This document shows, one piece after another, positions 37,246 through 59,164 of a DNA stretch of 64,000 nucleotides (position 1 is the first letter of the stretch; the number at the start of each line of letters is the position of its first letter). The stretch lies in assembly GCF_950295315.1 (NCBI RefSeq), contig NC_080181.1, positions 34,935,375 through 34,999,374 on the forward strand, in the 5' to 3' direction. The stretch comes from Erinaceus europaeus (Eukaryota > Chordata > Mammalia > Eulipotyphla > Erinaceidae). A program made the position numbers and the translations under genes. Below the pieces are notes generated by a model that ran no database searches, was not told where the DNA came from, and was given only the letters and a program-made list of their open reading frames with translations.

Positions 37246-39494
37246 AACTTTCGGAAAGCAAATTGGCGTCTGTTCAGTGATCTTACCAACAAATCTATTC
37301 CTGCAATTCCAATTAACTCTATCCCCTCTGAAGATTCCTACAAGTGCTTCCACCAAGCCATCTTCAAAGCAGCTTCCCAAGCCATTCCTTGTGGGAGACG
37401 TGCTAACTATACACCTTGTCTTGATGCTGAATGCGAGCAGCTACTAAAGGAGTATGATGAGTCGGGCGACCCAGATGCGGCTGACCATCTCATTGCCTCC
37501 CTGGATGCAGCACGCCAAACCCACTGGCAACAACTCACGGAAAGTCTGAACTTAACCCACTCAAGTAGGAAGGCCTGGAAGCTTCTTCACAGACTGGGTG
37601 CCAGAAGCCAACCCCCTCCCATCTCCCATCCTCCCGTATCTCCAAACTCAGTGGCCAGTCACCTAACTCAAGTTGGACGTGCTAAGATCGACCCAGTCTG
37701 GAAAAGAGAAATTTCCCATGAGTGGTCATCCCACTTCTGTTTATCTTGTCCATCTCCAAAACTCTCTCCCTTTACACTGTCTGTACTGGAAGACGCTTTG
37801 AAGAGGGTTAAACCGGGAAAAGCTGCTGGCTATGATTACATCACCCCAGAACTCATTCTTAACCTGGGTCCCGTGGCAAAGAAGTGGCTCGCTTCATTCC
37901 TGTCCCACATCTTGGAATCTGAGTCTATGCCCAAAGTTTGGTGTCGTGCGAAGATTATAGCGGTTTTGAAACCAAAGAAAGACCCAACACTGGCTGCCAG
38001 CTATAGACCAATTTCTCTCCTCTCCATGTGTTACAAACTCCTTGAGAGGCTGCTTCTGTCATGTATTTCTCATCTTACAGAGAAATTCCTATCACCCGCC
38101 CAACCTAGTTTCCGCCCAGGAAGATCTACCTGCAAACAAGCCCTGGCCCTCTCAACTTACATTGAAAATGGATTCCAGAAGAATTTAAAGACGGGTGCTG
38201 TCTTTGTTGATCTCACAGCAGCCTATGACACAGTTTGGCACTGTGGTCTCCTAGTCAAGATCTCAAGATGCCTGCCTCCATGGGTGGCCAACACTATATC
38301 GTTTCTTCTCCAAAACAGAAGATTCCGGGTGCATCTGGGTGACAAGTCTAGCAGATGGAGACTTGTCTCAAGTGGCCTCCCCCAGGGCTCTGTTCTGGCT
38401 CCTATGCTCTTTAATATTTACATCAATGACCTCCCAGAAACTTCTTCAAGGAAGTTCATCTACGCCGATGACATCTGCTGTGCAACTCAGGCATCAAAGT
38501 TCGACATCCTCGAGGAAACACTCACGAAAGACATGTCTCTGACATCTGATTACTGTAAAAAATGGTGACTAATCCCTAGAACTGCAAAAACAGAATCATC
38601 GGTTTTCCATCTACACCATGCTTCGGCCTCGCATGAGCTTAATGTGCAGCTTGGCGATACGAGAATCCAGCATGAAGCCCAGCCAGTCTATCTTGGCGTT
38701 ACTCTCGATCACACCCTGTCATTTCAAGAATATCTCATAAAAACTGCAGCAAAGGTGGGCGCGAGGAATAACATCATTGCAAGACTGGCCAGTTCCTCAT
38801 GGGGCGCGAGCGCTTCCTCGCTACGATCATCATCTCTGGCATTATGCTATTCCACTGCAGAATACTGTGCCCCAGTATGGTTCCGTAGCCCCCATGTCCA
38901 TTTGGTCGATTCCAAATTATATTCCTCCATGAGGATAATTTCTGTAACCATCTGTTTCACTCCAGTTCCATGGCTGCCAGTTCTTAGCAACATTGCCCCG
39001 CCAGATATTCATTGGGATGCGGCATCATCTAAGTTCATTTCCCATGTCTACGCTCGACCGGACCGGACCTGCCAATATACGCAGATATCTTCGCCCACCC
39101 TGTCCAATGCTTGACGTCTCGTCACCCAATCTGGTCCCCTACGCCTACACTGAACTTCTCTGTTCCAGACTCTTGGAAACAGAGTTGGCAGTCAGCTGAG
39201 GTAAAGAACACCTCATCACAGACCTCTGCAAGAGTCAACCCAGCTTTGACCTAGCACGTTATGATTGGGCCCTCCTCAATTGCTATTGAACAGGCCATGG
39301 CCGGTGCGCTGCTATGTTCCATCGCTGGGGAGCCAGAGACGACCCGAACTGCCCCTGCAGCTACAGACAGACTATGATCCACATAGTCAACGACTGCCAC
39401 CTCTCCAGATTCAAAGGAGGTCTCGAAACTTTACATCAGGCTCAACCTGATGCTGTTGACTGGCTACGGAAGAAGGGCAAACACTAGAAGAAGA
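37246..39494 (+). mobile_element. non-L1 LINE (Jockey/CR1-like), copy 1
   Basis: 2.25 kb, 5'-truncated, between short duplications of host SINE sequence. One frame is open from 37246 to 38565 (440 codons): a linker ('NFRKANWRLFSDLTNK'), then reverse transcriptase with 'KPGKAAGYDYITPELI', 'AASYRPISLLSMCYKLLE', 'DLTAAYDTVWH', 'SGLPQGSVLAPMLFNIY' and catalytic YADD at 38461-38472. A TGA at 38566 (CGA in copy 2), a 10-bp deletion near 39030 and further stops kill the rest. The element ends at its stop codon TAG (39484-39486) plus AAGAAG repeats. The RT motifs differ clearly from L1 (FADD) elsewhere in the window. The exact clade is not resolved. Confidence 0.9.
39330..39486 (+). pseudogene. LINE copy 1 C-terminal Cys/His motif and natural stop
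   Basis: Reads 'NCPCSYRQTMIHIVNDCH', a C-x-C...H...C arrangement, then 'DWLRKKGKH' and TAG. Copy 2 lacks one base in this last stretch, so the stop in copy 1 is taken as ancestral. Confidence 0.75.
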
Positions 39495-39585
39495 AGTGCT
39501 AGGGTTCGAGCCTGGGACTTCAAGACCCACAGACATGAAAGGTTTTTGAATAAACAGTATGCTGTCATCTCTCTGTCAAGCCTGG
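39495..39585 (-). repeat. SINE family C, right half
   Basis: Continuation of the split SINE, with 'gttcgagcctgggacttc' and 'aacagtatgctgtcatctc'. Confidence 0.75.
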
Positions 39586-39672
39586 AACTGTCAACATATG
39601 AGTAGCTTCTCAGGATGTCTCTCTGTCTCTCTGTCTACATGTACTCCAACATGAAGCTGTTCTCAGTCTACC

Positions 39673-42600
39673 TGAATAAAATTGAAAAGCTTCTGCAAAG
39701 CCAAAGGAACTATCAAACAAAGAGACCCCTCACAGAATGGGAGAAGATCTTCACATGCCATACATCAGACAAGAGACTAATCACCAAAATACACAAAGAG
39801 TTCAGCAAACTTAGCACCAAAAAAAGCAAATGACCACACCCAAAAAATGGGCAGAGGATATGAACATTCACTTCAGAGGAGATCTAAAAGGCTAACAAAC
39901 ATATGAAAAATTGTTCCAGGTCGTTGATTGTCAGAGAAATGCAAATAAAGACAACACTGAGATACCACCTCACCCCTGTGAGAATGGCATTCATCAAAAA
40001 GAACAGCAGCAACAAATGCTGGAGAGGCTGTGGGGACAGAGGAACCCATCTGCACTGCTCGTGGGAATGTAAGCTGGTCCAGCCTCTGTAGAGAGCAGTC
40101 TGGAGAACTCTCACAAGTCTAGACAGTTATTCCTCTCCTGGGGATATACTCCAAGGATTACATAATGCCCAACCAGAAAGATATGTGTACACCTGTGTTC
40201 ATAGCAGCACAACTTATAATAGCTAAAACCTGGAAGCAACCCAGGTGCCCCACATCAGATGAGTAGTTGAGAAAGTTGTGGTATATATACACAATGGAAT
40301 AATACGCAGATATTAAGAATAATGAACCCACCTTCTCTGACCCATCTTGGATGGAGCTAGAAGGAATTATGTTAAGTAATCTAAGTCAGAAAGATAAAGA
40401 TGAGTATGAGATGATCCCACTCATAAACAGTTGAGAAAGAATAACAGAAAGGAAACACAAAGCAGGATCTGACTAAATTTGTAGTAGGGTACCAAAGTAA
40501 AAACCCTGGGTGGAGGGTGAGGGTGGATGTTCAGCTTCATGGGGGGGGCAGGTGGGATGGGATGGTGTTAATGTACACTCCTATTAATATTTAGTCATAT
40601 AAATCACTATTTAAGTAAAATAAGAGGGGAAAAACTGATCAATGTCTCAAACTTTTTGAAGCACAGACTGAGTCTTTTTTTATACATAGGCTGAGTCTTT
40701 GATATATTGAATCTCTTAAAAGCTTAGTCCAGGGAGAACAAAAGCAAATAGTGGCATAGGTATATGCAAATAATGTCAAAGGACATAAAATATGGTGATG
40801 GTGTGTATGATACAGCAAATCCTAACAAAGGCATGTTTCAAAGTTAACCCAACTGCCAAACAATATGATTATTGAAATAGCTATCTATTGTCTTCTTAAA
40901 CCCTAAGACAACAGGAATCTCCTGCTTCCTCTATTGAGCCTATGTATCTCCAATCCTGGAATCTCTGGGGTGGGGCTCACTTCCCTGCTAGCTTCTTTCA
41001 AGTCATACCAAATGATATTACATTCGCCAATTCCAACCTAATCAATGCAACGAGTACCATCTCAGCATGCTTAACCTCAGACTATGTACAGAGACGTCAG
41101 GCATGGAATGCCAACCTTTCACCCTCACCACTCTGGTGAGACTTTTCCTTTCATGGCATTCTCTAATTCCATTTCAGGAGGTTCACTTCTGACAAAGTCC
41201 AAACCTAGATATAGGCCAGGTCCTGTTAGAACATATGTTCACATGTATCCATAAATTAGGGCAAAATATATACTTGAAAGCAAAAAGACAGAATAGTCTT
41301 TAGTGAATCAGTACCAAGTTCATAATGAAATAGAATCCACTTAGGCTTAGATACCCTCCTCACCTACCTCCTATTACAGTTCTCTCACTTACTCCAAAAC
41401 TAATCTTATCAAAGAAAGGACTTTCAAAAGCTGAATAAGGGCAAGAGACTGGCATATTTTAACAATCACTCTTTAGTAACTATCAGGCCATTCCAACAAC
41501 TGGGGCCTTAACTAAGGAATCCTGAGATTTCCAAACAGACTTGATGGGCCTAGAACTCGAAAAAATCCCTCTCTCCATTGTTACTGGTCATCTCTATCAG
41601 TAACAACAAAATAGACCCCTTTGTGGGCCCCCTATAGGACCTTACCCTCAACTTGGATCAACAATGGTAGAGAATCCATCCCTTCGGAGGATGGACAACA
41701 TTCTCTATACTATACCTGAGCAAGATGGGTTGATATTGGAGCAGCATGGAATGTTCCTACTTATGACCACAGAATGTGAGCTCAGATCTAGAGGGATACA
41801 GAGTTCACACAGGTGCCTAAGCTAGTTACGGGCCCCAGATCACATCAGATCGATGGGGTTTACAGTCAACAATATTTATACCCCTTTCCCATATTAGGGA
41901 GCTACTCTCTTCCCTGATCCAGCTTCCTGGCCCTTTTCCCAGAGCCAAGACATCATCTCCCCAGACAATAACTTGGATCCATCTGCATATCAGATTTCAG
42001 GCTCAGGAAAAAACAAACAAGCAAACAAAAACACCCTTAGAAATATAACTAAAATATGCCTACTAGCTATCAACAAAATGGAAACCCCCCCAACACTTCA
42101 CCTGCACTTTTCCAGCCTTTAGGTGCATGAGTGGTCAACAATTTGTTTGGCTTTGTATGTTAACTCATTTCAGCAACCAGGTTCCAGATACTAGCAGGAT
42201 GCAACCAGACTTCCCCAGACAGACAACCCCACCAATGTGCCTTGGAGCTATGCTTGCCCAGAGCCCTGCCCCACTAGGGAAAGAGAGAGACAGGTTGGGA
42301 GTATGGATCAACCTGTCAACACCCATGTTCAGTGGGGAAGCAATTAGAGAAGTCAGACCTTCCACCTTCTGCATCCCACAATGATCTTGGGTCCATACTC
42401 CCAGAGGGGTAAAGAATAGGAAAGCTTGAGAGTTGGGCTGTAGCACATCAGCTTAAGCGCAGATGGCGCAAAGCGTAAGTACCGGCGTAAGGATCCAGGT
42501 TCGAGCCCTGGCTCCCCACCTGCAGGGGAGTCGCTTCACAAGTGGTGAAGTAGGTCTGCAGGTGTCTTTCTCTCCCACTCTGTCTTCCCCTCCTCTCTCC

Positions 42601-42835
42601 ATTTCTCTCTGTCTTATCCAACAATGATGACAACAATAATAACTACAACAATAAAATAACAAGGGCAACAAAAGGGAATAAAATAAATATTTAAAAAAAG
42701 GAATTGGAAAGCTATCAGGGGAGGGGATGGGATATGGAGGTCTGGTAGTGGGAACTGTGTGAAGTTGTACCCCTCTTATCTTATGGTTTTGTGAATTTTT
42801 CCTACTTATAAATAAAAAATTTAAAATAAAAAAAG
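39673..42835 (+). mobile_element. 5'-truncated L1 with long 3' UTR
   Basis: Starts inside ORF2 ('aataaaattgaaaagcttc'), has the C-terminal domain to about 40440 with stops, then a 3' UTR of about 2.1 kb excluding the nested SINE, and an A-rich tail ending about 42835. Flanks 'gaagctgttctcag' (39650) and 'gaaactgttttcacag' (42835) may be a diverged target duplication. Confidence 0.85.
42427..42700 (+). repeat. SINE family A nested in L1
   Basis: Flanked by 'gaataggaaagct' (42414-42426) and 'gaattggaaagct' (42701-42713). It interrupts the L1 3' UTR text and is younger than that L1. Confidence 0.92.
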
Positions 42836-43415
42836 AAACTGTTTTCACAGCACTTCCTGACCTCTAGAAGTATAAGAAATAAATTTCTGCCATTAAACAA
42901 AAAAAGTGAAAGACCTGGAAAAAGCAAAAACAAACAAAAATCCAAACCTATTATGCTGTCTCTCTAGGCTGCATAACCATTTACCATTCTTAAGATAAAC
43001 AAGAAAAGCAGGCATTATCTTTTTTATTTTTAAGAAAAAAGTATTTAAACTGACTACATTTTTCTCTTTGCTCCCATACTACCAAATAGATTCTAGGTGT
43101 CACTAAAAGCTAGTCATTTTCCTGGGATTGCTCTGTCCTTGGGCTAATGGACATTAAAGGACTACATAGCAAGTGTAAAGAGGAATTACTGAAGGAGTTC
43201 TGGGTGCACTTGGTCCAAAGATTGCTGGATGGAGGGATGACAGTCTCTCTGGACATACATGCATGACCAAAGAACATTTCAACCCCCCTGCCATGTCATG
43301 ATATGATTAAATTTCTAATATGTGTTTACATTCACAGATGATAATTTGTGGGCTCAGCTGTATTTACACATATATCACAAGTAACATATTGTCATTGAGG
43401 CCAATGGACACTAAC
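42836..43415. other. TUBGCP5 intron, unassigned
   Basis: No repeat or exon is recognised between the L1 tail and the next exon. Confidence 0.5.
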
Positions 43416-43593
43416 CCTGGTCACGATGTAGTTGTGTAAACTGTTAACAAAGTGTATGAGTTTCACTCTTAACAGAAACATACGATGGATCTGCTGCTTT
43501 ACTGGCTCCTTTTGTGTTCCAAAGTCAGTGGTTTGTCTTGTTCAGATGCAAGTCCTTCTTTAAATTGTTGCTTTTCAGCAGTACTAGCTAGTT
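43416..43593 (-). pseudogene. TUBGCP5: TUBGCP5 pseudogene exon, 1-bp frameshift
   Basis: 178 nt between acceptor 'atcttttacag' and donor 'gttagt'. The first part reads LASTAEKQQFKEGLASEQD. After a one-base loss near 43530 the other frame continues as FGTQKEPVKQQ, IHRMFLLRVKLIHFVNSL and HNYIVTR. By recalled human sequence the intact exon would be 179 nt. Uncorrected, the frame stops at TAA soon after the deletion. Confidence 0.94.
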
Positions 43594-43814
43594 CTGTAAA
43601 AGATTAAAAAAACAGAGCAGGTAAGAATAGCACCTTCTAAAATCCCAACCACACTATCACAGGCTGGAACTCTAAGGGTGTGTGGGCACTACCCTCAGAA
43701 AGGAGACTCTGCTGAAGGAATCCCACCTTTAGTCTCTGGAAGGTGAAGCAGTGAAAAGTTCCCATATCACCTTGATTACCACTGTCACAAAGTTCTGTGG
43801 GCTTGTCATTTAAA

Positions 43815-44440
43815 AAAAAATTGACTCTCTGCCCTGATCCAGCTTTTTGGTCCTATTCCCAACTCTGACACAATCCTCCCAGACAACACTTACAGCCCAC
43901 CTGCATGCTATCAGGCTCAGGCAAAATTTAGTAAAGTCATGGGCCACTTGGATTGTACCTAACATAGATTTCCTAGCTTCTTCCAATATGAAGGCTCCAA
44001 ACCTCACCTGCCATCTTCTTACCCTTAGGTTCCTGATTATTTAAAAAATTGTTCTGCTTTTTTAATGCTTTTTTCAGCCACCAGGTTGCAGAAGCTACCA
44101 CGATGCCAACCTGATTTCCCTGGGCATAATCTCATCAACGTGTCCTGGAAATGCATCTCCCCAGAACCTTGCCCCACTACAGAAAGACAGAAACAAGCTA
44201 GGGGTATGGATTGACCTGTCAACACCCATGTCCAGCAGAGAAGTAGTTATAGAAGCCAGACCTCCTACCTTCTGCACCCCCAAAATATCTCTGTTCCATA
44301 CTCTTAGAGGGATTAAGAATAGGGAAATTTCCAATGGAGGGGATGGTATACAAAATTCTGATGGTGGGCATTGTACCCCTCTTATGCCACAATCTTGTTT
44401 ATTATTATTAACTCACTAATAAAAATTATTTTTAAAAGTC
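43815..44440 (+). mobile_element. L1 3' UTR fragment
   Basis: Sense, from 'ctctctgccctgatccagc' to an A-rich end after 'ctcactaataaaaatta'. More diverged than the copy at 39673. Confidence 0.8.
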
Positions 44441-44556
44441 TTTGAATAACCTAAGAATATTTATTATGGCTAAATTCCCAATTAAGTCACTGTATTTCAG
44501 AATGATTATGGTATGACTTCTGGGTAGCTCATTCAGAGAAGTTAATTGTGAGGTTT

Positions 44557-44570
44557 AAGAAATAGTTGCT
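44557..44570. repeat. target-site duplication of SINE, left
   Basis: 'aagaaatagttgct', repeated exactly at 44868-44881. Confidence 0.95.
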
Positions 44571-44867
44571 GGGAGTCGGGCTGTAGCGCAGCAGGTTAAG
44601 CGCAGGTGGCGCAAAGCACAAGGACCGGCATAAGGATCCCGGTTCGAACCCCGGCTCCCAACCTGCAGGGGAGTCACTTCACAGGCGGTGAAGCAGGTCT
44701 GCAGGTGTCTATCTTTCTCTCCTCCTCTCTGTCTTCCCCTCCTCTCTCCATTTCTCCCTATCCAACAACGACAACAACAATAACTACGACAATAAAAAAA
44801 AAAACAAGGGCAACAAAAGGGAATAAATAAATAAAATAAACATTTAAAAAAAAGAGTAAAAAAAAGA
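44571..44867 (+). repeat. SINE family A, best-preserved copy
   Basis: Perfect 14-bp target duplication on both sides, near-consensus head 'gggagtcgggctgtagcgc', and RNA polymerase III B-box 'ggttcgaaccc' at 44641-44651. Likely one of the youngest insertions here. Confidence 0.95.
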
Positions 44868-44881
44868 AAGAAATAGTTGCT

Positions 44882-45225
44882 GTAAGAAAGTTGTGGCATA
44901 TAAACAAAATGGTACACTACACAGCTATAAAAAATGATGGATTCTTCTACTTTGCTTCATCCTGATGGAACTTGAAGGGATCATGTTGAGTGAGATGCAG
45001 AACAAGGGCAAATACTGGCTGATCTCAGCCAAAGATGGAAACTAAGAAAAAAGAGCAGGGGAGGAAGAGGACATTGGGCCAGTGGTGGATGAAGAAATAT
45101 TTGGATGGTTGATAGGAGTGGTGTACAAATACTAGATACTAATCCTGAGGAGATGAGAAGCTGTGCCTATGTCCTGTAAGTCATTATTTTACCAACACAA
45201 TTATCAGAAAAAGAAAACAAAACAA
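44882..45225 (+). mobile_element. older L1 ORF2/3' fragment
   Basis: 'aagttgtggcatataaac' and 'ggaacttgaagggatcatg' match the L1 ORF2 C terminus but diverge strongly from the other copies. It runs to an A-rich end near 45225. Confidence 0.7.
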
Positions 45226-45314
45226 AACAAAAACAAAACTGCTGTAAGGCAATGCATACTTTTGAAAAAAGGTTAAAATTAAATGATAAATTACCTGTTG
45301 AAAACACACCTTAC

Positions 45315-45355
45315 CACCAAATAGCAACATCAAGACTGTATTTTGCCCACTTTAT
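45315..45355 (-). pseudogene. TUBGCP5: TUBGCP5 pseudogene mini-exon, 2-bp deletion
   Basis: 41 nt between acceptor 'cttactacag' and donor 'gtaaggt'. It reads IKWAKYSLDV, then shifts frame; recalled human sequence continues LLFG. The intact exon would be 43 nt, so two bases are lost. The last G joins to the first two bases of the exon at 43593 to give Glu, confirming the phase. Confidence 0.9.
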
Positions 45356-45750
45356 CTGTAGTAAGAGAAGGAACACTTTATTATAAAATTTTTAATATTC
45401 TGAACTTATAACGATGTGTGGCCATGGAACCTATGAAAATAAAAGCACAAAACCAGGATAAAAGTATCCTACAACTTGTATGCTTTAATTTTAATGAATT
45501 TTTCCCCTGCTAGGGAGTTAGTTTAAACTTGGGAGATAAAGTGAAGGACTTGTATACCTGAGGCATTGGCTTTGATCCCAGGAATTATATCTGCAAGAGC
45601 AGTGTTCTGATATTTCTCTAATTACAAAAAGTATTTTCATAGCACATAACTTGTAGCTAAGTGTGAGGTCATCTAAGATATGAACAGGAAGTTTTTTCTT
45701 AGCTGTGTCAACATTTTCAAAAGATATAGACAGTCTAGATAAGTAAAGCT
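45356..45750. other. TUBGCP5 intron, unassigned
   Basis: The exon expected next upstream (human residues around ILDGLTLSYKVPWPVD) is not visible here or further right, up to 50472. Confidence 0.5.
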
Positions 45751-47560
45751 TATTTTTAGTTTATTAAGGTATCCTGCTCATATACAATGTTCTTTGAAAA
45801 ATTGTATTTATTAATGCAACCAATGCCACCATGCTATATGTTATGTTGTTATTGACCTTTGCTTCGGATTATATAGAGATGGCAAGCCTGAGATGTCATC
45901 TTTCCACCTCCAATAACCTGGTGAGATCTTCCTAACACATGAGATTGCCCAGTTCCAGTTCAGATGTCACACTCTCCATCAAAGTTACAGATCCTAGATA
46001 GAGGCTAGGGCCTAGAGGACTGGGTACATGTATACATATATACATAAACTAGGGGCAACTATATACATCAGAGTAAAAGTGCTTAATAGTTCACTGGGAT
46101 TAGGCTGAGACATACTAAATTTGGCAATCTAGTAGAAAGGCCTAAAGTAGGCACCATAAATTGTCTACTCACACATTTATTACTTAGATATACATACCCT
46201 CTTCTCCTACCCCACTGCTTCACATTCCTCCGTCACTCTATTTACTCAACTACACAAAAGAATAAGTAAAATACATCTCTTAATCTCTTCTGACAGCATA
46301 GCATTATTATCACCCCTTGATCTTTAGAAGATACACTATATATATAATTTGGCCAAGAGCTATATTGGCAAAAATTTTATATCAACTAAAAAACAATTAT
46401 TGTCCCTATGACTACCTTCATTAGAACTATCAAACAAGTAAATGCAGTAAAACTTGAGGCCCCACTAAAATCCTACATGTGTTTCCTCTCAAACTTGAGG
46501 CCAGACCATATAGACCAATTTGGATACAAGTGAAAATGCTTAATAGCTGGGAGAAAATCCAAGCTTGTCAGATAAAGGGACTTACAAAAGCTGAAAAGGG
46601 CAAGAAACTGGCTCACTTAATGGTGGCCTCTTTGGTCAGTACTAGGCTACCCCATCACTTGGTGCCCAAGTCAGGGAGTCCTAGGATCCCTTCATAGATA
46701 TGATGGGCCTAGACCTCTAATAGACTCTTCTTTCCACCATCACTGGTCACTTCCATCAGGAACATTACCATAAACCCTCCTGTGGCCCTCTCTAGGACCC
46801 TGAACTCACTATAAAATAGCAATAGTAAGGCTGCCCCACCTTGCTGTATCATACTACTCTGCCACTTGAGGAACACTGGTCCTAAGTGAGTGCAGCCTAG
46901 AATACTCCCAGCTGTGAAGCTGTGATCACTGACTGTAAAAGCTCAGATTGACAAGGACACAGAGGTAATAAAGGCTCCTGTGTTAAGTATGAATATACAT
47001 GGGCCCTGGGTCAGATTGATGGGGTAAACAGTTAATTGTATTTATATATGTTCTTCAAGTTTGGAAGCTACTCCCTGCCCTAAACCAGCTTTCTAGTTCT
47101 AGTCTCAACTCTTAACTATATCTTCCCAGACAATATTTTCAGTCCACCTCTATGTTGCTCAGGCAAAAGTCACTAAAGTCATGGGCCCGTAGGAACTTAC
47201 CTAAAACAGACTTCCTAGATTCTTATCACTCTAAAATTCCCATTTTCATCTACTCTATTCCTACTTTTTGGTTTCTATTTATTGAACACTTTGTCCTGTG
47301 TCATAGCTTATTGCCTTTCAGACACAAAGGTACAGATGCTACTGAACTCCATGGGCAGAAGGTCTCACCAGTGTTCTAGAACCTTACCTCTCTAAAACCT
47401 TACCCCACTAGGGAAAAACAGAAACAGGCTGGGGGTACGGATCAACCTGCCAATACTCATGTCTGGCAGACAAGCAATCACAGAAGCCAAAACTCCTATC
47501 TTCTGCAACCCCAAAAGAATTTTGGTCCATAATCCCAGAGGGGGGGAAATGATAGGGGAA
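45751..47560 (+). mobile_element. diverged L1 3' UTR
   Basis: Sense 3' UTR text with many changes ('ttgaccttgg', 'gggtcagattgatggggta', 'cagctttctagttctagtc'), older than the copy at 39673. Confidence 0.7.
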
Positions 47561-47569
47561 TATGGTTAG

Positions 47570-48280: not shown

Positions 48281-48289
48281 GTGAAGAAA

Positions 48290-48460: not shown

Positions 48461-48461
48461 T

Positions 48462-48742: not shown

Positions 48743-48888
48743 GGACAAAGTTTTAAACACACACACCTTGATTGCTTATCTGGTAAAATTCAGGTTGAGA
48801 AGGTGGAGATGGAGGGTACTCAGGGAGAACATGCAGGCATGTGCACTGACAATATGGGACATTTCTAAAGCATAGCTTCATCATTTTT

Positions 48889-50471: not shown

Positions 50472-50656
50472 TGAGTGCTGTCTTCAGGTTAATGTTGTCC
50501 TCCTGCTTTTTGGAGCTGGACATTAAGAAAAAGACACATTCTACCATGTTTTTTTTTTCTCTTATTTTATCAAAAATTGATGTGCAGAAGTCATACATGG
50601 TATCTCCACTTTCCATTAAGAAAAAACTTCTCATGGTCTGCAAATATTCAACCAAC
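50472..50656 (-). pseudogene. TUBGCP5: TUBGCP5 pseudogene exon, two insertions and a stop
   Basis: Starts after acceptor 'ctccattcag' and reads LVEYLQTMRSFFL, then MESGDTMYDFCTSIFDKI. A run of ten A (nine expected if the human Glu codon simply mutated) shifts the frame. TAG stands for a Gln codon just after, and an extra T a few codons on shifts it again. The 3' border at 'gtaaatc' is approximate. Confidence 0.92.
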
Positions 50657-50702
50657 CTGAATGGAGAAATAAGGGAGAAAAATTTTGTTATTAATACAAA
50701 AT

Positions 50703-50985
50703 TTAAAAAAATATTTATTTACTTATTTCCCCTTTTGTTGCCTTTGTTTAACACCGTTGTGGTTGTTGTTATTGATGTCCTCATTGTTTTATAGGACAGA
50801 GAGAAATGGAGAGGGGAGGGGAATACAGAGGGGTAGAAAAAGATAGACACCTGCAGACCTGCTTCACTGCATGTGAAGCGACTCCTCTGCAGGTGGGGAG
50901 CTGGGGGCTTGAACTGGGATCCTTAAGCCAGTTCTTGTGCTTTGGGCCATGTGCACTTAACTCGCTGCACCATTGCCCAACTCCC
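50703..50985 (-). repeat. SINE family A
   Basis: Antisense copy about 50 bp upstream of the exon; head 'ccattgcccaactcccc'. Confidence 0.9.
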
Positions 50986-50992
50986 CTAGTAT

Positions 50993-51157
50993 TAAATATT
51001 TATACACTCCCTTTTGTTGCCCTTGTTGTTTTATTGCTGTAGTTATTATTGATGTTGTTGTTGTTTGATAGGACAGAGAGAAATGGAAAGGAGAGGAAGA
51101 CAGAGAGGGGGAGAGAAAGACACCTGCAGACCTGCTTCACAGCTTGTGAAACGACTC
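50993..51157 (-). repeat. SINE family A, head missing
   Basis: Antisense tail and body only; stops at 'gtgaaacgactc'. Directly adjacent to the previous copy, same orientation. Confidence 0.85.
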
Positions 51158-51394
51158 TTAAGACAAAAATTCTTAAGACAAAGGTTTAGAAGTACTAACA
51201 CCTCTTTTGACCAGACCATTATTCAGCTCTGGTTTATAGTAGTACAAGGGACGGAAACTGGGACTTCGGGGTCCTACGAAAATGTTTTATCAACGACATT
51301 GCTCCGACTATCTCTCAGATCCTATTAATACTTTTTAAATTTCTTTATTTTCTTTTGCATCCAGGGTTACTGCTCGAGTTTGGTGCCTCCCCTA

Positions 51395-51640
51395 TGAATC
51401 CACTGCTCCTGGAGACCATTTATTTTTCCCCATTGTTATTATTATTGTTGTTGGATAGGAGAGAGAGATTGAGAGTGGAAGGGAAGACAAAGGGGGAGAG
51501 AAAGACAGACACCTGAAGACCTGCCTCATCACTTGCGAAGCGACCCCCACTGCAGGTGGGGAGGTGGGGGTTAAAACTAGGATCCTTGCACCAGTACTTG
51601 CATTTTGCACTATTAAGCAGATGTGCCCGACCCCACTACT
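51395..51640 (-). repeat. SINE family A'
   Basis: Antisense; 'gaatccactgctcctggag' at left, head near 51615-51640. Confidence 0.85.
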
Positions 51641-51869
51641 GTTACCTCTTAGTGACTTGCTGCTGTTATTTGTTTTAATGCATTTCAAGCCTATGAACAT
51701 TTTTAATGCCACAACCTCTGGGATAAACTCTTTCATTGTAGACAGATACCACAGCATCTAATGGAGCTTCCCCTAGTGCTATGCTGCCCCCAATGTTGTG
51801 CTAGGGTACTAATAGATAGTCTTAGGCACAGTAAGGTGGTCATTCTACTGGGTAAGTTATTTATTTTCT
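51641..51869. other. TUBGCP5 intron, unassigned
   Basis: No feature recognised. Confidence 0.4.
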
Positions 51870-52083
51870 TTTTAAAAAAATATTTTTATTTATTGGTGTA
51901 TAGAGACAGAAATTGAGAGGGGAGGAGGGAGATACAAAGGGAGAGAGATTTAAGAGTCACCTGTAGCCCTGCTTCATCACTTGTGAAGCTTTCCCTCTGC
52001 AGGTGGGGACCAGGGTCTTGAACCTAGGTCCTAGTACATTGTAATGTGAGCACCTAACCTGGTATGCCACCACCTGGTCCCAA
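51870..52083 (-). repeat. SINE family B
   Basis: Antisense copy; head 'gccaccacctggtcccaa' at right. Confidence 0.9.
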
Positions 52084-52335
52084 ATTATCTCTTTTCCAAG
52101 GCCTTTTTAAAATATGCAATGTGGAAACTGAAATCACGGACTCTATAAGAGTAATACTGCTGAGCTCCCTCCCTGTCTTAATGCTCATATATTTTTAGAG
52201 AGACACCAAAGCAATATTCCACCATTTTTATGAACTCCTCTATTTCTGTTTGTGGTGTTCTTTGTGGCACTCAAACCTGTAGTCTCACACATGAAAGACA
52301 ATTGAGTTCTGCCAAATGAGCCACTACTCAGGCCC

Positions 52336-52354
52336 TTTAAAAAGTTTTAAAATT
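52336..52354. repeat. target-site duplication of the TRIM retrocopy, left
   Basis: 'tttaaaaagttttaaaatt', repeated exactly at 53349-53367. Confidence 0.92.
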
Positions 52355-53348
52355 ACATCTCCACCACCATGGCTCAGCTCCAGGAAGTTTCAGAGAGATG
52401 TGTGATGCCAGACATGAACATTCTGAGTGAGGTCAAGAGGATTTATCTTATCTATGAGAGCAGAGAGGTCCCATCTGTGTGCTTATCCCAGCTACGGAGG
52501 GAGGTATATAATCTCCCTCCCATGGAATCAGCCCTGGAGAAGATTCAACAGAAATTCAGAGTAGAAGTGGCTCTGGATCCACATACCACAGATCCTCATC
52601 TCTGTGTGTCCAAGGACAAACGACCTGTGACACTGAGGAAGAGAAGGAGTAATGTTCTCCAGAGACAGCAGATGATTCCCTTTGATCTTGAAGTCCTGGG
52701 CTCTCAAGAATTCCATGCTGGCTGCCATTACTGGGAGGTGCAGGTGAATGACAAGCCCAGCTTGGCCATAGGGCTGTGTAGCCACTGCCCCTCCAGCAGG
52801 GGCAGCAGCAGCTAATGTCTGTTCAGAACAGGTGCTGGACTATTCACCTACAAGATGGACACTATGTGGCAGGTGGTGGACGTCCTGTTGTTCTGTCCTT
52901 GAAGAGAAGAAAGCCCAGATGGATTTGAATTTACCTGGACTGGGAGCTAGGGCAGATTTCCTTCTACAACTTGAGTGACAGGTCTGACCTCCATTCTTTC
53001 CAGGAGACATTTTCCCACTCACTGAAGCCTTATTTCTGTGTGGGACCAGATTTGATTCCTCTCTCCCTCTGTGGAGTACCTGATCTTTAGAATGCTGTAC
53101 AATGGTTTTGGATCTTTTTCTGAAATTTTTAAGTGTCTCATCTAGAAAAGCTGAGTCTCCTGCCTTGCCTATATGAAAACTTACAACTCTGTACAGGAAA
53201 ATTGCTCATGCTGAAACCTTCATTCAATCACATCATGCTTTGTGCTAACAAAAGTTACTATTTATGTGTTATGCATGTACAAACTATTGTATTTTTCTGT
53301 GTAAACCCTTTATCCTCCAATAAACAAATTTAAAAAACAATTAAAATT
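52355..53348 (+). pseudogene. TRIM-type PRY-SPRY retrocopy, 5'-truncated
   Basis: An intronless insertion bounded by a perfect 19-bp duplication and an A-rich 3' end, the mark of an L1-mediated mRNA copy. The open part (52369-52815, 148 codons) has a coiled-coil end ('LQEVSERCVMPDMNILSEV'), a PRY motif ('VALDPHTTDPHLCVSKDKR') and a SPRY start ('EFHAGCHYWEVQVNDKPS'). In other frames it continues as 'FRTGAGLFTYKMDTMWQVV' and 'ELGQISFYNLSDRSDL', ending PYFCVGPDLIPLSLC. RING and B-box are absent, and frameshifts near 52805 and 52905 disable it. The exact TRIM paralogue is not identified. Its 3' end is an L1-type tail (53268-53335). Confidence 0.85.
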
Positions 53349-53366
53349 TTTAAAAAGTTTTAAAAT

Positions 53367-53650
53367 TGGGGCCTGGAGGAAGAGTGTCTGAGAGTATACA
53401 GGGTGGTAGCAAAGTACACATTATTATGCCTGATGATATGGGTTCAAACCCCTGATCCTCCACCTGCAAGGTTGGAAACTTCAAAAGTGGTGCAGCATTG
53501 CTGCAGGTATCTTCTTCTTCTCTCTCTCTCTACTGATGATTTCTCTCTGTCTCTACAATAAAAAAAGAAAGAAAATGGCCCCTGGGAGTGGTGGAATTGT
53601 GCACTGCATCCCAATGATAACCTTGGTGGTAAAGCTACCTTTTACAATTA
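53367..53650 (+). repeat. diverged SINE family B
   Basis: 'ggggcctggaggaagagtg' head, 'cctgatcctccacctgca' core, ending in A-rich sequence near 53650. Confidence 0.6.
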
Positions 53651-53874
53651 AAAAAATAGTGTATATTTTACTTTAAAAATCAGAAGAACATGTAAAATAC
53701 TGTAGAAAATTGGACAAAGTAGCAGAAATATAACAAAAACATTTAAGTCTTGCCATTCTTGGTGAATTTCCACTTCTAATATTAAGGGCACTTCTTTTCT
53801 ATTCCTGCACCCCCCCCACACATTAAAAACGTATATTTACCAACCACATATTCTGTTTAAGAATAATGATTCAG

Positions 53875-54080
53875 AGGGGCCAGGTGGTGGCTCACCTGGT
53901 GGAGTACACGTTACAATGTGCAAGTAACCAGTTTCGAGCCTCTGGTCCCCACCTGCAGGGGAAAAGCTTTGCAAGTGGTGAAGAAATACTGCAAATGTCT
54001 GTCTCTCTTCCTATCAGCCCACTTCCTTCTTGATTTCTGGCTGTCTTTAATAAATAAATAGATAATAATTAAAATAATTA
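53875..54080 (+). repeat. SINE family B
   Basis: 'ggggccaggtggtggctcac' head, AAT-rich tail. Confidence 0.9.
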
Positions 54081-54217
54081 TTCATTTATTTTATGAAAGA
54101 GACATATACAAAGTGCCAGTTGTCAAACCTGCAAATGCTTTATTCACTGGACCATCTCCTTGGCCACATGTCCTTCTTTTTTAAGCTTTAAGGAGATGGG
54201 TTGTTTTTTTTTGCCTC

Positions 54218-54533
54218 GTGGGTTACTGCTGGGGCTCAATGCCTGCACTATGAATTCACTGCTCCTGGAGGCCATTTTCCCCCATTTTGTTGCCCTTGTT
54301 GTTACTATTGCTATTGCTGCCATTGATGTTGTTGTTGTTGGATAGGACAGAGAGAAAATGAGAGGGAAGGGGAAGATAGAGAGGGAGAAAGATAGACACC
54401 TGAAGACCTGCTTCAATGCTTGAGAAGTGAATCCCCGGCAGGTGGGGAGCCTGGGGCTTAAACCAGGATCCTTATGCGGGTTCTTACACTTTATACTATG
54501 TGCGCTTAACCGGGTGTGCCAACACCCAACCCA
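54218..54533 (-). repeat. SINE family A'
   Basis: Antisense; 'gaattcactgctcctggagg' at left and head 'ccaacacccaaccc' at right. Confidence 0.85.
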
Positions 54534-54916
54534 CAAAGATTTTACAATTTTTAAAACTCTGTAAAGTTCATACATAAATATAGATATGCCATATTTGACC
54601 AATGGTAGACTACTAAATAATTTCATATTTCTTTCTGATAGAAAAATTTGTGATAAGAATTTTTTGGTACAATTCTCATATATAATTCTCATGTATTTCT
54701 TTTGATATATAATCTCACATGTAGGTAAGAAAATACCAGTAAATGATTGATCATATCAAAAATAAAAACTGTTTACTATACATATATTTGCTACTCAAAC
54801 AAAAATGACCTAAAAATGTAGGCTTTAAAATAATTTCTGCATGTGCCAGAGTGCTACTCTGGTCTCTGTCTCACAAATAAATAAATAAATAAAAATTCTT
54901 TTTAAATTAAGTAACT
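54534..54916. other. TUBGCP5 intron, unassigned
   Basis: AT-rich; no exon or clear repeat. Confidence 0.45.
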
Positions 54917-55125
54917 TGGGGCTGGGTAGTGGTGCATCTGGTTGAGCACACACATTACAGTGCACAAGGACCCAGGTTTGAGCCCCCGGTCCTCACCTGC
55001 AGGGGGAAAGCTTTGCAAGTGGTGAACAGCACTGTAGGTGTCTCTGTCTTTCTTCCTCTCTATCCCCTCTCTCTAGATTTCTGGATTTCTCTATTCAATA
55101 AATTAATTTTTAAAAAATTAAAAGT
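54917..55125 (+). repeat. SINE family B
   Basis: 'ggggctgggtagtggtgcat' head. Confidence 0.9.
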
Positions 55126-55149
55126 TAAGTAACTTCAGTTGTTCTCATT

Positions 55150-55315
55150 TATTTTTAAAAAAATTTTACTTATACACAAAAAAGATAATTTGACACAGAA
55201 ACAGAAATAGCATCAAAGCACTACTCTGGTACAGGTAGTGCTGGTAGTGAACCAGGAAATCCAGGTACATAAGTTTGATGCTCTACCAGTTGAGCTGTTT
55301 CCCTAGCTGCCTTAT
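55150..55315 (-). repeat. SINE family D-like
   Basis: Antisense: 'agcactactctggtacagg' and 'gctctaccagttgagctgt'. Confidence 0.55.
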
Positions 55316-55431
55316 TTTATTTTTATATGGTTCCAGAATATGAAGCAAGGGTCTTGTGCATGCATTACAGTTCTGAGCAGCCTCCTCATAATTTTTTTAT
55401 TCTATATCCTTAGGGGATATAAAATTCCATC

Positions 55432-55655
55432 ATGAAGAGCTGAGTAGTGGTGCACCTGGTTGAGCACACACATTACAGAGCTCAAAGGACCCAGGTCTGA
55501 GCCCCCACCCCCACCTTCAGGGGGAAAGTTTCATAAGTGGTGAAGCAGTGCTGTGGGTGTCTCTGTCTCTCTCCTTCTCTATAACCTCTTCCCCTCTCAA
55601 TTTCTGACTGTCTCTATCCAATAAATAAATAAAGATAATAAAATTTTTTTAATCC
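55432..55655 (+). repeat. SINE family B
   Basis: 'gagctgagtagtggtgcacc' head and 'aataaataaataaagataat' tail; about 165 bp from the next TUBGCP5 exon. Confidence 0.88.
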
Positions 55656-55820
55656 CATCATGGAGCTCCCCAATTATGTCACCCCCTAGCTGTCTATGAC
55701 AATCTCACATGGTGATAGGGACTTAATTTACAGCCTTAAGTAAAGCATCCACTTTACCCACTGAGATAGCTCCAGGTCCCTCAACTGGTAAGTACAATAA
55801 ACTAAACTACTCCCTTATAC

Positions 55821-56007
55821 CTGTAATCTTTCTTTAGTTTGCATAAGGTTTCCACAGCAATTTAGATACTGTTTGTCAATATGAGGATAAAGGAAAGATC
55901 TCGGTGTTAATTCAAAAGTCTAGCAGGCCACAGATTCTGATGATCTATCCAAACAGGTATGTCCAGCAGCAAACTTCTCATGAAAATCACTCTGTTCCAA
56001 TTACAAC
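55821..56007 (-). pseudogene. TUBGCP5: TUBGCP5 pseudogene exon, two stops and a 2-bp deletion
   Basis: 187 nt; acceptor 'tatgttaaag', donor 'gtataag'. It reads L-stop-LEQSDFHEKFAAG, then DRSSESVAC-stop, then TFELTPRSFLYPHIDKQY and NCCGNLMQT. Recalled human GCP5 has MYLEQ and CQTFEL: the Tyr codon became TAA and the Gln codon TAG. Two bases are missing before the donor compared with human TLKKDY. The split Arg codon (AG|G) matches the exon at 59385. Confidence 0.95.
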
Positions 56008-56535
56008 CTTTAACATAAAAGAAAAAGTCTTTTAGAAGATGCTGTCAATAGAATTCACTTGTATTAAAATGTTGAAGTCCTGTATTTTACTTTTAGTCTT
56101 AGAATTGACAACTGCTATAGAAAAAGCAATCAGTTTTCCTTAAACTATCATTTGCACAAACCGATTGTTCATAGTCAGGTACTGAATAGGGCACATGTGG
56201 GCATTAATCATTTATTTCTCTGGGCTGAGCAGCTAAGAGCATGGACCAAGATTTATTTTATGTAGGTAGGGGTCTGATTCAATATGACACCCACTTCTGA
56301 CTCAGACTTTTTAGTGTTATCTTGGCAGCATTTCCTCCCCATGGACCCAGGGTACAAGAAGACAGAAATTGGTGGATTTCCTCAAGTTAGAGGCTCTATT
56401 ACACACTTGAAATAAGTAAATACAGTATTTGTTCCTATCAATTTACCAGAAGGAAAAGGCTTCAAAAGTTCTTGCTTTCAAGGCTGGAAAAGCCCTACCT
56501 GGAAGTAAAAAAGTTATTAAATATTGTCATTTTGT
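56008..56535. other. TUBGCP5 intron, unassigned
   Basis: No repeat or exon recognised. Confidence 0.45.
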
Positions 56536-56539
56536 TCAC

Positions 56540-56670
56540 TGAAGATGCAACCAGTGTATCAAAAAAGAGGATATTGTGTTCTTGGGGACAAAATTGATGG
56601 AATTAAAGGTGATTATGCTCAGAAAAATAAGAGATGAAAGACAATTACCAGATGGTTTCACTCATGTGGA
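56540..56670 (+). mobile_element. old L1 3' end, left half (split by LINE copy 2)
   Basis: 'ggtgattatgctcagaaaa' and 'ccagatggtttcactcatg'. It continues at 59165-59350 with 'ctcatgtggaatctagag' and 'gagaactatggtggttatc'. The same L1 type is at 61000-61490. Confidence 0.8.
56660..56670. repeat. target-site duplication of LINE copy 2, left
   Basis: 'actcatgtgga', repeated exactly at 59165-59175. Confidence 0.88.
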
Positions 56671-59164
56671 CTGGGCTTCAGCAAATGACCTCTCCCTATT
56701 ATAGGATCCCAAACAGTCAGGATCTTTTCACAGTGCTAGATGGAGTAAAGACTGGTCACCCGACCTATGCTGGATTAGCACAGTCAACGGCCAAACCTTT
56801 CCCACTACGAGACTCGTTCTTAAGATCTTCCCGCACAGTCATCACCGCCCAGCTATCATCCACATTGGTCTCCAGCTCCCACTGATTCTGTGCTCAGAGA
56901 AACTAAGATGGAACTTTTGGAAAGCAAACTGGCGTCTGTTCAGTGATCTTACCAACAAGTCTATTCCTGCAATTCCAATTAACTCTATCCCCTCTGAAGA
57001 TTCCTACAGGCGCTTCAACCAAGCCATCTTTAAAGCAGCTTCCCAAGCTATTCCTTGTGGGAGACATGCTAACTATATGCCTTGTCTTGATGCTGAATGC
57101 GAGCAACTACTAAAGCAGTATGATGAGTCGGGCGACCGAGATGTGGCTGACCATCTCATTGCCTCCCTGGATGCAGCACGCCAAGCCCGCTGGCAACAAT
57201 TCACGGAAAGTCTCAACTTCACCCACTCAAGTAGGAAGGCCTGGAAGCTTCTTCATAGTCTAGGTGCCGGTAGCCAACCCTCTCCCATCCTCCCGTATCT
57301 CCAAACTCAGTGGCCAGTCACCTAACTCAAGTTGGATGTGCTAAGATCGACCCAGTCTGGAAAAGAGAAATTTCCCATGAGTGGTCATCCCACGTCCATT
57401 TATCTGGTCCATCTCCAAAACTCTCTCCCTTTACACTGTCTGAACTGGAAGACGCTTTGAAGAGGGTTAAACTGGGAACGGCTGCTGGTTATGATAACAT
57501 AACCCCAGAACTCATTCGTAACTTGGGCCCCGTGGCAAAGAAGTGGCTCACTTCATTCCTGTCCCACATCTTGGAATCTGAATCTATGCCCAAAATTTGG
57601 CATCATGCGAAGATAATAGCAGTTTGAAACCAAAGAAAGACCCAACACTGGCCGCCAGCTATAGACCAATTTCTCTCCTCTCCATGTGTTACAGACTCCT
57701 TGAGAGGCTGCTTCTGTCACGTATTTCTCCTCTTACAGAGAAATTCCTATCACCCGCCCAAGTTGGTTTCCGCCCAGGAAGATCTACCTGCAAACAAGCC
57801 CTGGCCCTCTCAACTTACATTGAAAATGGATTCCAGAAGAATTTAAAGACGGGTGCTGTCTGTGTTGATCTCACAGCAGCCTATGACAAAGTCTGGCACC
57901 TTGGTCTCCTACTCAAGATCTCAAGATGCCTGCCTCCATAGGTGGCCAACACTATATCGTTTCTTCTCCAAAACAGAAGATTCCGGGTGCATCTGGGTGA
58001 CAAGTCTAGCAGATGGAGACTTGTCTCAAGTGGCCTCCCCCAGGGCTCTGTTCTGGCTCCTACACTATTTAATATTTACATCAATGACCTTCCAGAAACT
58101 TCTTCAAGGAAGTTCATCTACGCCGATGACATCTGCTGTGCAACTCAGGCATCCAATTTTGACATCCTAGAGGAAACACTCACGAAAGACATGTCTCTGA
58201 TATCTGATTACTGTAAAAAATGGCGACTAATCCCTAGCACTGCAAAAACGGTATCATCTGTTTTTCATCTACACCATGTCTCGGCCTCGCATGAGCTTAA
58301 TGTGCAGCTTGGCGATACGAGAATCCGGCATGAAGCCCAGCCAGTCTATATTGGCGTTACTCTCAATCGCACCCTGTCATTTCAAGAATATCTCATAAAA
58401 ACTGCAGCAAAGGTGGGCGCGAGGAATAACATCATTGCAAGACTGGCCAGCTCTTCATGGGGCTCAAGTGCTTCCACACTAAGATCATCATCTCTGGCAT
58501 TATGCTATTCCACTGCAGAATACTGTGCCCCAGTATGGTTCCATAGCCCCCATGTCCACTTGGTCGATTCCAAATTATATTCCTCTGTGAGGATAATTTC
58601 TGGAACCATCCGTTTCACCCCGGTTCCATGGCTGCCAGTTCTTAGCAACATTGCCCCACCAGGTATTCGTCAGGATGCGGCATCATCTAGACATGGGAAA
58701 GTTCATTTCCCATGTCTACGCTCGACCGGACCGGACCTGCCAATATACGCAGATATCTTCGCCCACCCTGTCCAACGGTTGACGTCTCGTCACCCAATCT
58801 GGTCCCCTACGCCTACACTGAACTTCTCTGTTCCAGACTCTTGGAAACAGAGTTGGCAGTCAGCTGAGGTAAAGAACAAACACCTCATCACAGACCCCTG
58901 CAAGCGTCAACCGGCTTTGACCTAGCACGTTATGATTGGGCCCTCCTCAATCGCTATCGAACAGGCCATGGCCGGTGCACTGCTATGTTCCATCGCTGGG
59001 GAGCCAGAGATGACCTGAACTGCCCCTGCGGCTACAGACAGACTATGACCCACATAGTCAACGACTGCCACCTCTCCAGATTCAAAGGAGGTCTCAAAAC
59101 TTTACATCAAGCTCAACCTGACGCTGTTGACTGGCTACGGAAAAGGGCAAATGCTAGAAGAAGA
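56671..59164 (+). mobile_element. non-L1 LINE (Jockey/CR1-like), copy 2
   Basis: 2.49 kb between exact 11-bp duplications of the L1 tail it entered. It starts inside the endonuclease: 'WASANDLSLL', TAG, then 'WSPDLCWISTVNG', 'SHHRPAIIHIGLQLPLI' and 'LRWNFWKANWRL'. Reverse transcriptase (57420-58210) carries 'PQGSVLAPTLFNIYIND' and YADD at 58119-58130. Then comes the C-terminal region with 'CPCGYRQTMTHIVNDCH'. Breaks: TAG at 56702, a 7-bp length difference near 57280, loss of one T near 57624, TAG at 57939-57941 (Trp in copy 1), and single-base losses near 58915 and 59148. It ends in AAGAAG directly after the C terminus. Confidence 0.92.
58688..58718. repeat. 13-bp perfect inverted repeat in the LINE ORF
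   Basis: Arms 'tagacatgggaaa' (58688-58700) and 'tttcccatgtcta' (58706-58718) flank a 5-base loop. Copy 1 has lost 10 bp of the left arm at the matching place, near 39030. Confidence 0.95.

What the first reader, a model, noticed from the sequence alone, without database searches (positions are those of the whole stretch)
37246..59164. A non-L1 LINE (Jockey/CR1-like) in a placental mammal, in two similar copies
Two insertions (37246-39494 and 56671-59164) share a protein unlike L1: the endonuclease C terminus with 'SHHRPAIIHIGLQLPLI', RT with 'GRSTCKQALALSTYIENG' and YADD, and a C-terminal 'CPCGYRQTMTHIVNDCH' motif. By recalled family features these resemble elements annotated as Jockey-like in arthropods and cnidarians. 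Placental mammals are known for L1 and some RTE (BovB), not for this type. Long blocks, such as 80 nt around the PQGSV motif, are identical between copies, and much of the difference is CpG decay, so activity was fairly recent. Horizontal transfer, for example through ticks, is an inference.
Basis: partly seen in the sequence, partly recalled or inferred. Interest (0 to 1): 0.92.

Follow-up and report, generated by a model that had tools for sequence, protein, structure and literature searches.

The report
Ribozyme-carrying jumping gene in a mammal
A jumping gene of a type whose named relatives are arthropod and fish genes has recently multiplied in this mammal's genome, probably after crossing from another animal; its front end looks like a self-cutting RNA, and shortened copies that keep that front end have spread with it.

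Summary
Confirmed: two 5'-truncated copies of a non-L1 LINE (37244-39494, 56671-59164), integrated in the host genome; copy 1 splits a host repeat. The element is of Jockey-superfamily type (APE-like endonuclease plus reverse transcriptase, one ~995-codon frame, ~3.08 kb). The five species-named relatives found are four arthropod proteins and one eel protein; the window's own L1, as control, gives only mammals among its named hits. CpG observed/expected is four to six times that of the surroundings, and copies are young: most likely horizontal transfer (inferred; donor unknown, tick route and other mammals untested).

Beyond the finding: 26 of 30 loci share one 5' terminus that folds like a hepatitis-delta-type self-cleaving ribozyme (prediction; no Rfam match, no assay). 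9,896 places match its first 32 nt. Of 36 sampled, 25 are internally deleted derivatives; five deletion junctions recur at separate loci: a ribozyme-bearing SINE family of the SIDE type. An uncommented 'I-Jockey' row (4,476 copies) is in print for the African hedgehog (PMC12026660). The host is a placental mammal; 'hedgehog' is inferred. The clade is open.

The parts
37244..39494 (+). Copy 1 of the LINE, 5'-truncated, endonuclease lost, RT and C terminus present, stops and frameshifts
37240..38565 (+). Longest open stretch of copy 1 (442 aa, RVT_1)
37238..37243 (+). Target-site duplication of copy 1, 5' side (AGTGCT, only 6 nt, weak on its own)
39495..39500 (+). Target-site duplication of copy 1, 3' side
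37168..37237 (+). Left flank of copy 1 used in the empty-site test; left part of the SINE-like host repeat that copy 1 split
   Evidence: 9 alignments to other places run across the joined site
39495..39572 (+). Right part of the same SINE-like host repeat
56671..59164 (+). Copy 2 of the LINE, 5'-truncated inside the endonuclease
56660..56670 (+). Target-site duplication of copy 2, 5' side (ACTCATGTGGA)
59165..59175 (+). Target-site duplication of copy 2, 3' side (perfect, 11 nt)
56705..57322 (+). Open stretch of copy 2: endonuclease C terminus with SHHRPAIIHIGLQLPLI and the linker to RT (no Pfam match of its own)
57942..58922 (+). Open stretch of copy 2: RT palm with PQGSV and YADD, then the C-terminal region

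Best explanation
The two insertions are dead, 5'-truncated copies of a ~3.08-kb single-frame LINE of the Jockey superfamily type that multiplied recently in this mammal lineage, most likely after horizontal transfer from another animal. It moves by target-primed reverse transcription (shown by duplications, variable 5' truncation, a common 3' end and inversions). Its RNA is probably released from host co-transcripts by an HDV-like self-cleaving ribozyme that forms the 5' end (predicted fold, not assayed). The open frame begins about 85 nt inside that end, and the stop codon TAG is followed only by AAGAAGAA. The LINE machinery also mobilises internally deleted derivatives that keep the ribozyme end and, where the 3' end was seen, the 3' tail: a SINE family of the SIDE type (recurrent junctions and duplications shown; mobilisation in trans inferred).
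For: Integration: duplications of 8 nt or more in 14 of 23 copies against 3 of 506 mismatched flank pairs; copy 1 splits a host repeat. Family: Pfam EN and RVT_1 in one frame, 995-codon frame. Foreignness: 5 species-named proteins among the 208 distinct listed hits of two searches (best 120 of 2700 and of 2384), none a mammal, while the window's L1 gives 17 species-named rows in the best 120 of 7642, all mammals; CpG o/e 0.50-0.66 against 0.12 for the rest of the window and 0.11 for its L1; stem of 0.48 and shallow crown in the tree. Recency: 22 copies differ by 0.013 at non-CpG sites (20 of the 22 picked by similarity), copies 1 and 2 by 0.024; private non-CpG changes fall 34/34/33 on the three codon positions. 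5' end: 26 of 30 loci reach one terminus, within a few nt; 10 of 30 satisfy a full HDV-like descriptor exactly there, against 1 hit in 128 kb of window strands and 0 of 3000 shuffles. Numbers: 9,896 matches to the first 32 nt, control 0. Derivatives: 25 of 36.
Against: 20 of 30 loci do not satisfy the strict ribozyme descriptor. No Rfam HDV family matches, even at E 10 on the 121-nt stretch. Covariation among copies does not exceed shuffles, as expected for recent copies. The descriptor was written after I had seen the sequence. The minimum-energy fold without pseudoknots is not the HDV fold and is not unusually stable (z -1.3). 9 of 23 copies show no duplication of 8 nt. The donor is unknown: nearest relatives, about 57-61% identical over most of the query, are unnamed metagenome proteins. 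The protein searches score only candidates that share most words, so absence of mammals there is not proof. Presence in other mammals was not tested. The sample of 36 was chosen by a perfect 32-base 5' match on one contig.
Confidence: 0.72

Rival explanations
1. Vertical inheritance: the element is an old vertebrate LINE lineage (CR1/L2/Jockey group) that survived in this lineage and was lost elsewhere.
For: The eel protein lies in the same 28-row clade, so vertebrates are not excluded as long-term hosts; CR1 and L2 belong to the same superfamily (PMC4120745 passages).
Against: CpG o/e of 0.50-0.66 while the rest of the window is at 0.12; no mammal among the five named relatives while all 17 named L1 hits are mammals; long stem to a shallow crown.
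Confidence: 0.1
2. The conserved 5' end is a promoter or structured leader, not a self-cleaving ribozyme.
For: No Rfam match, covariation uninformative, ordinary minimum-energy fold, 20 of 30 loci fail the strict descriptor; L1Tc's ribozyme region also acts as a promoter (PMC8256844 passages).
Against: P1 of 7 bp, P2 of 6, P3 of 3, P1' directly after P3', P4, CTGA before P2' and a G in L3 all fit at the first base of the element; background about 1 hit per 130-220 kb of strand; all 25 sampled derivatives keep at least 79 nt, beyond the 32 nt used to find them; 21 of 25 derivatives carry a P1' that pairs throughout by Watson-Crick pairs.
Confidence: 0.2
3. The short derivatives are separate one-off deletions of long copies, not a mobilised family.
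For: Several junctions occur once in the sample of 36.
Against: Five junctions recur at separate loci (6, 3, 2, 2 and 2 times); 16 of the 20 short copies have a duplication of 8 nt or more (no null was run for this set); six members of one group differ by 1-6 of 157 nt.
Confidence: 0.05
4. Assembly contamination by foreign DNA.
For: None found.
Against: Thousands of matches, with fetched copies on contigs of tens to hundreds of Mb, insertion inside a host repeat, duplications.
Confidence: 0.01

Closest known systems
I-Jockey row of the African hedgehog repeat table (PMC12026660; abstract, section 3.3 and passages seen)
   Same: Non-L1 LINE with the I-Jockey label in an erinaceid, 4,476 copies, 2.232 Mb, 4 consensi of which 3 de novo
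   Different: Only a table row; no structure, origin, ribozyme or short derivatives in what was seen. Identity with this element could not be tested
R2 LINEs with 5' HDV-like ribozyme and their SIDEs (PMC3774820 passages; PMC3414825 search listing)
   Same: Ribozyme at the 5' end, single ORF, internally deleted parasites keeping ribozyme and 3' end
   Different: R2 is site-specific in 28S rDNA and, by recall, has another endonuclease type; here scattered insertion and an APE-like endonuclease
L1Tc/ingi, NARTc and SIDER of trypanosomatids (PMC4035085 and PMC8256844 passages)
   Same: LINE clade with 5' HDV-like ribozyme and short non-autonomous relatives
   Different: Protist hosts; L1Tc has RNase H activity, and no RNase H domain was found by Pfam in three full-length relatives or in the window pieces
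RTE1_Sar in the common shrew (PMC6542046 passages)
   Same: LINE probably acquired horizontally by one eulipotyphlan lineage
   Different: RTE with nematode relatives; that study reports no significant hit in hedgehog
BovB and L1 horizontal transfer (PMC6036668 passages); vertebrate survey (PMC7070016 passages)
   Same: LINEs crossing between animals
   Different: The word jockey does not occur in PMC6036668; in PMC7070016 Jockey is discussed for selection, hedgehog is not mentioned

Membership tests
Jockey superfamily/group LINE | APE-type endonuclease and RT in one protein | tested here: met
   PF14529, PF03372 and PF00078 in the frame of L036 (first 670 codons) and of three relatives
Jockey superfamily/group LINE | Placement in an RT tree among Jockey, CR1, L2, Daphne references | not testable with these tools
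   No named reference proteins of these clades were at hand; the tree holds only homologs
Jockey clade in the strict sense | ORF1 with one or two RRM and three CCHC domains (PMC4120745 passages) | tested here: not met
   The full-length copy L036 has one frame of 995 codons starting about 85 nt from the 5' end; the only other open stretch of 80 codons or more on that strand lies inside it. Only one of the six copies read end to end has an unbroken frame
HDV-like ribozyme | Double-pseudoknot fold with P1, P2, P3, P4, P1' directly after P3' | tested here: met
   descriptor met by 10 of 30 loci at the terminus; 95.8% of pair cells standard in 26 copies, 25 distinct
HDV-like ribozyme | Match to a curated covariance model | tested here: not met
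   the HDV models may not cover retrotransposon types (recalled), so this weighs little
HDV-like ribozyme | Self-cleavage | not testable with these tools
   needs a bench assay
SIDE-type SINE | Internally deleted, both ends kept, repeated insertion with duplications | tested here: met
   25 of 36 sampled 5' ends internally deleted, 20 of 36 with the 3' part in view, 5 recurrent junctions, duplications of 8 nt or more in 16 of 20
Horizontally transferred element | Patchy host range with closest relatives in distant hosts | tested here: inconclusive
   named relatives arthropod and eel only, named L1 hits mammals only; no other mammal genome searched
L1 | Closest relatives mammalian L1 ORF2 | tested here: not met
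   human L1 ORF2 is only a distant PDB match, E 2.6e-8, behind two R2 proteins

The most novel reading that the evidence does not exclude
A mammal lineage acquired, and within the last several million years amplified, an arthropod/fish-type LINE that brought a working HDV-like ribozyme; it gave rise there to a SINE family of about 7,000 ribozyme-bearing internally deleted copies, so that this genome now holds up to about 10,000 potentially self-cleaving RNA sites.
Probability: 0.55. Interest if true: 0.9.

Novelty: new variant of a known kind. Interest (0 to 1): 0.82.

Why it matters
In the papers seen here, horizontal transfer of LINEs into placental mammals concerns RTE/BovB and L1 types; a Jockey-type case with thousands of young copies would be a datable natural experiment in how a mammal genome meets a foreign LINE (CpG decay, silencing, parasitic derivatives). 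Ribozyme-bearing SIDEs are described for insects and trypanosomatids in those papers; thousands in a mammal would make it possible to test how self-cleaving sequences inside transcripts are tolerated, and how a LINE without a known promoter of its own is expressed.

Tried and rejected
Contamination rejected. Mammalian L1 rejected. An exact genomic source for the 95%-identical protein P0003 was sought and not found among 75 scored places, best 98%; 15 of its first 20 residues match the antisense strand of the element, so it probably comes from an inverted copy. Relatives in viral contigs: none confirmed; prokaryote genome contigs: one 30% relative in a Flavobacteriales MAG contig, not used. Rfam: no HDV family. 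Covariation: uninformative. Minimum-energy fold: unremarkable. tRNA scan of the window: none, so the tRNA origin of the SINE is not tested here. Structure prediction was not run, since the RT fold was not in doubt. Literature: ten searches; no listed title or start of abstract describes this element. Ruminski 2011 on LINE ribozymes is not held. In PMC13052205 (gymnure genome) and PMC6036668 the word jockey does not occur.

The genome-wide count of RT copies could not be made: that pattern request did not complete, nor an earlier shorter form of it.
Full report
What is in the window. Two stretches on the + strand, 37244-39494 and 56671-59164, are 93.6% alike over 2267 columns and encode a reverse transcriptase (Pfam RVT_1). 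Neither is intact. Copy 2 is flanked by a perfect 11-nt duplication, ACTCATGTGGA. Copy 1 is flanked by AGTGCT, which at 6 nt is weak alone, but it lies inside a SINE-like host repeat: with the two flanks joined, nine alignments to other places (two in the window, seven in fetched loci, 64-71% identity) run across the junction. So both are real insertions in the host genome.

The host. The window's L1 RT finds proteins named from horse, bats, rabbit, porpoise, orca, pig, pangolin and others: 17 species-named rows in the best 120 of 7642, all mammals. The genome G000 has 2.72 Gb in 1172 contigs. A placental mammal is therefore well supported.

The element genome-wide. A 984-base probe had 5517 first-look candidates, of which 40 were scored, all at 95% or more, the window copy included. 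Twenty copies were fetched. They end at the same place, the stop codon TAG followed by AAGAAGAA with small variants, and begin at many different points. L009 has an inverted 5' part; among 30 loci found with a 5' probe, L032, L035, L038 and L048 also carry inverted parts, as twin priming would leave. In 14 of 23 copies a duplication of 8 nt or more was found, against 3 of 506 mismatched flank pairs; 9 of 23 showed less. The 23 are 18 of the 20 fetched copies (L022 and L027 left out), both window copies, and L036, L041 and L044; in L036 and L044 the duplication overlaps the first bases of the terminus. This is ordinary target-primed reverse transcription.

Full-length structure. Of the 30 loci found with the 5' probe, 26 reach one and the same 5' terminus within a few nt, preceded by unrelated flanks or by an inverted part of the element; L030, L035, L042 and L045 do not. 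One fetched copy (L036) runs 3081 nt from that terminus to the tail and has a single open frame of 995 codons with endonuclease and RT domains; no room is left for an ORF1. Of the six copies read end to end, the other five have broken frames. Of 75 best-scored places for the RT protein, 43 have no stop in the matched part (my count), so long open copies exist; that set is chosen by similarity.

Age. Among 22 copies (20 picked by similarity, plus the two window copies) the mean K2P distance is 0.028 at all sites and 0.013 without CpG columns; window copies 1 and 2 differ by 0.051 and 0.024. Twenty copies compared over element positions 600-2000 differ by 0.017 without CpG. With 2e-9 per site per year (6e-9 per generation and 3-year generations, from a figure legend of PMC13052205) copies 1 and 2 are about 6 million years old; with twice that rate, about 3. 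This is rough. Private substitutions fall 34, 34 and 33 on the three codon positions outside CpG columns, as expected for copies dead on arrival; shared ones 3, 7 and 11.

Foreign origin. CpG observed/expected is 0.50 in both window copies and 0.58-0.66 in six of the 20 fetched copies, against 0.12 for the rest of the window and 0.11 for the L1 there: this sequence has not been exposed to mammalian CpG decay for long. In two protein searches (120 rows listed of 2700 and of 2384, 208 distinct proteins) five rows carry species names: Phlebotomus, Cordylochernes, Nilaparvata, Choristoneura and the eel Synaphobranchus, at 42-49% identity. The nearest relatives, about 57-61% over most of the query, are unnamed metagenome proteins. 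P0003 (95% to copy 1 over 58% of that query) looks like an inverted copy of this same element in an unnamed ENA contig. In the tree the element forms a group with P0003 (100/100) on a stem of 0.48, next to three unnamed proteins (96/95). The eel and further unnamed proteins make up the rest of a 28-row clade; the four named arthropod proteins, with eight unnamed ones, lie on the other side of the midpoint root (100/100). Horizontal transfer is the best reading, but no donor was found and no other mammal could be searched.

The 5' end as a ribozyme. The terminus reads GGGATGC ATT GGATCG ACC TTCCCGT GGT GCATCTC GTGAGTA CCCA TTCAT TGGG GAAA CTGA CGATCC. It gives P1 (7 bp with one G-U), P2 (6 bp), P3 (3 bp), a seven-nt L3 with a G, P1' directly after P3', P4, and CTGA before P2'. 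This is the arrangement of HDV-like ribozymes (for R2: P1 typically 6-7 bp, P2 at least 5, a catalytic C; a G in L3 highly conserved; PMC3774820 passages; the CNRA motif and other descriptor details are from recall). A descriptor that I wrote after seeing the sequence is met at exactly this place in 10 of 30 loci and nowhere else in them, and once in 128 kb of window strands. A faster version of it gave 1 hit in 222,792 bases (both strands counted) of the first 20 loci, 0 in 3000 shuffles of the 90-nt end, and 1 in three shuffled windows. Against: 20 of 30 loci miss the strict descriptor, no HDV family of Rfam matches, covariation does not exceed shuffles, and the pseudoknot-free fold is ordinary. 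In the passages read, such ribozymes at LINE 5' ends are named for R2, R4, RTE and L1Tc/ingi; two searches listed no paper for the Jockey group, but Ruminski 2011, which may name more, is not held.

Copy number and short derivatives. A 32-base pattern (the terminus from its third base on) with up to three mismatches occurs 4876 + 5020 times, its reversed control 0 times. The first 36 perfect matches listed, in genome order on contig C1, were fetched. 25 of 36 are internally deleted: 20 of these show the 3' part within the fetched stretch and measure 100-565 nt (L067 aligned only to position 3061), four (L082, L083, L094, L098) run on beyond it, and one (L095) joins 145 to 668. 11 of 36 are contiguous for at least 402 nt. 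The same junction recurs at separate loci: about 150/3028 six times, 173/2677 three times, 130/3015, 117/3042 and 207/2962 twice each. 16 of the 20 short copies have duplications of 8 nt or more (no null run for this set). The shortest, 100 nt, keeps 79 nt of the 5' end and the last 20 nt. Six members of the commonest group differ by 1-6 of 157 nt. GG precedes GATGC in 30 of 36. The P1' is GCATCCC, fully Watson-Crick, in 21 of 25 deleted copies and 1 of 11 long ones; 7 of 11 long ones keep the G-U form. Scaled to 9,896 matches this would be about 6,900 derivatives, with wide error because the sample asked for a perfect 5' match on one contig.

How it works, with the status of each step. Integration by target-primed reverse transcription: shown by its traces. 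Endonuclease and RT in one protein: shown by Pfam. Release of the RNA from host transcripts by the ribozyme: predicted. Translation close behind the ribozyme: inferred from the ~85-nt leader (start codon not determined). Recognition of the short 3' end, and mobilisation of the derivatives in trans: inferred from what the 20 derivatives seen to the 3' part retain.

What is known. PMC12026660 lists I-Jockey, 2.232 Mb and 4,476 copies, in the African hedgehog; the word occurs once in the main text, in that table (abstract, section 3.3 and passages seen). In the listings of ten literature searches I saw no description of it as a transfer, nor of its ribozyme or derivatives. R2 SIDEs (PMC3774820 passages; PMC3414825, search listing only) and trypanosomatid elements (PMC4035085, passages) are the closest precedents for ribozyme-bearing derivatives.

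Noticed in passing
29669-33031: An L1 ORF2 in three open pieces; the middle piece is closest to L1 proteins of placental mammals (named ones 67-76% identical); used as a control query.
   Followed up: partly
39676-40200: L1-like 3' sequence downstream of the repeat that holds copy 1, seen by eye as similar to the L1 at 29669-33031.
   Followed up: no
52351-52812: An open stretch with a PRY domain (PF13765), probably a fragment of a TRIM or butyrophilin-like gene.
   Followed up: no
L029: A contig filed under a Flavobacteriales MAG encodes a 30% relative of the element, probably eukaryotic contamination.
   Followed up: no
L066-L101: The short derivatives favour a P1' (GCATCCC, 21 of 25) that turns a G-U pair of the LINE's predicted ribozyme into G-C, as if selected for a stronger P1.
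   Followed up: partly
56558-56648 and 61115-61211: The left flank of copy 2 is 77% alike to a stretch 4.5 kb downstream, an unidentified host repeat.
   Followed up: no
P0003: A 582-aa frame in an unnamed ENA contig looks like an inverted copy of this element and was not found exactly among 75 scored places in G000; it may come from another individual or a related species.
   Followed up: partly
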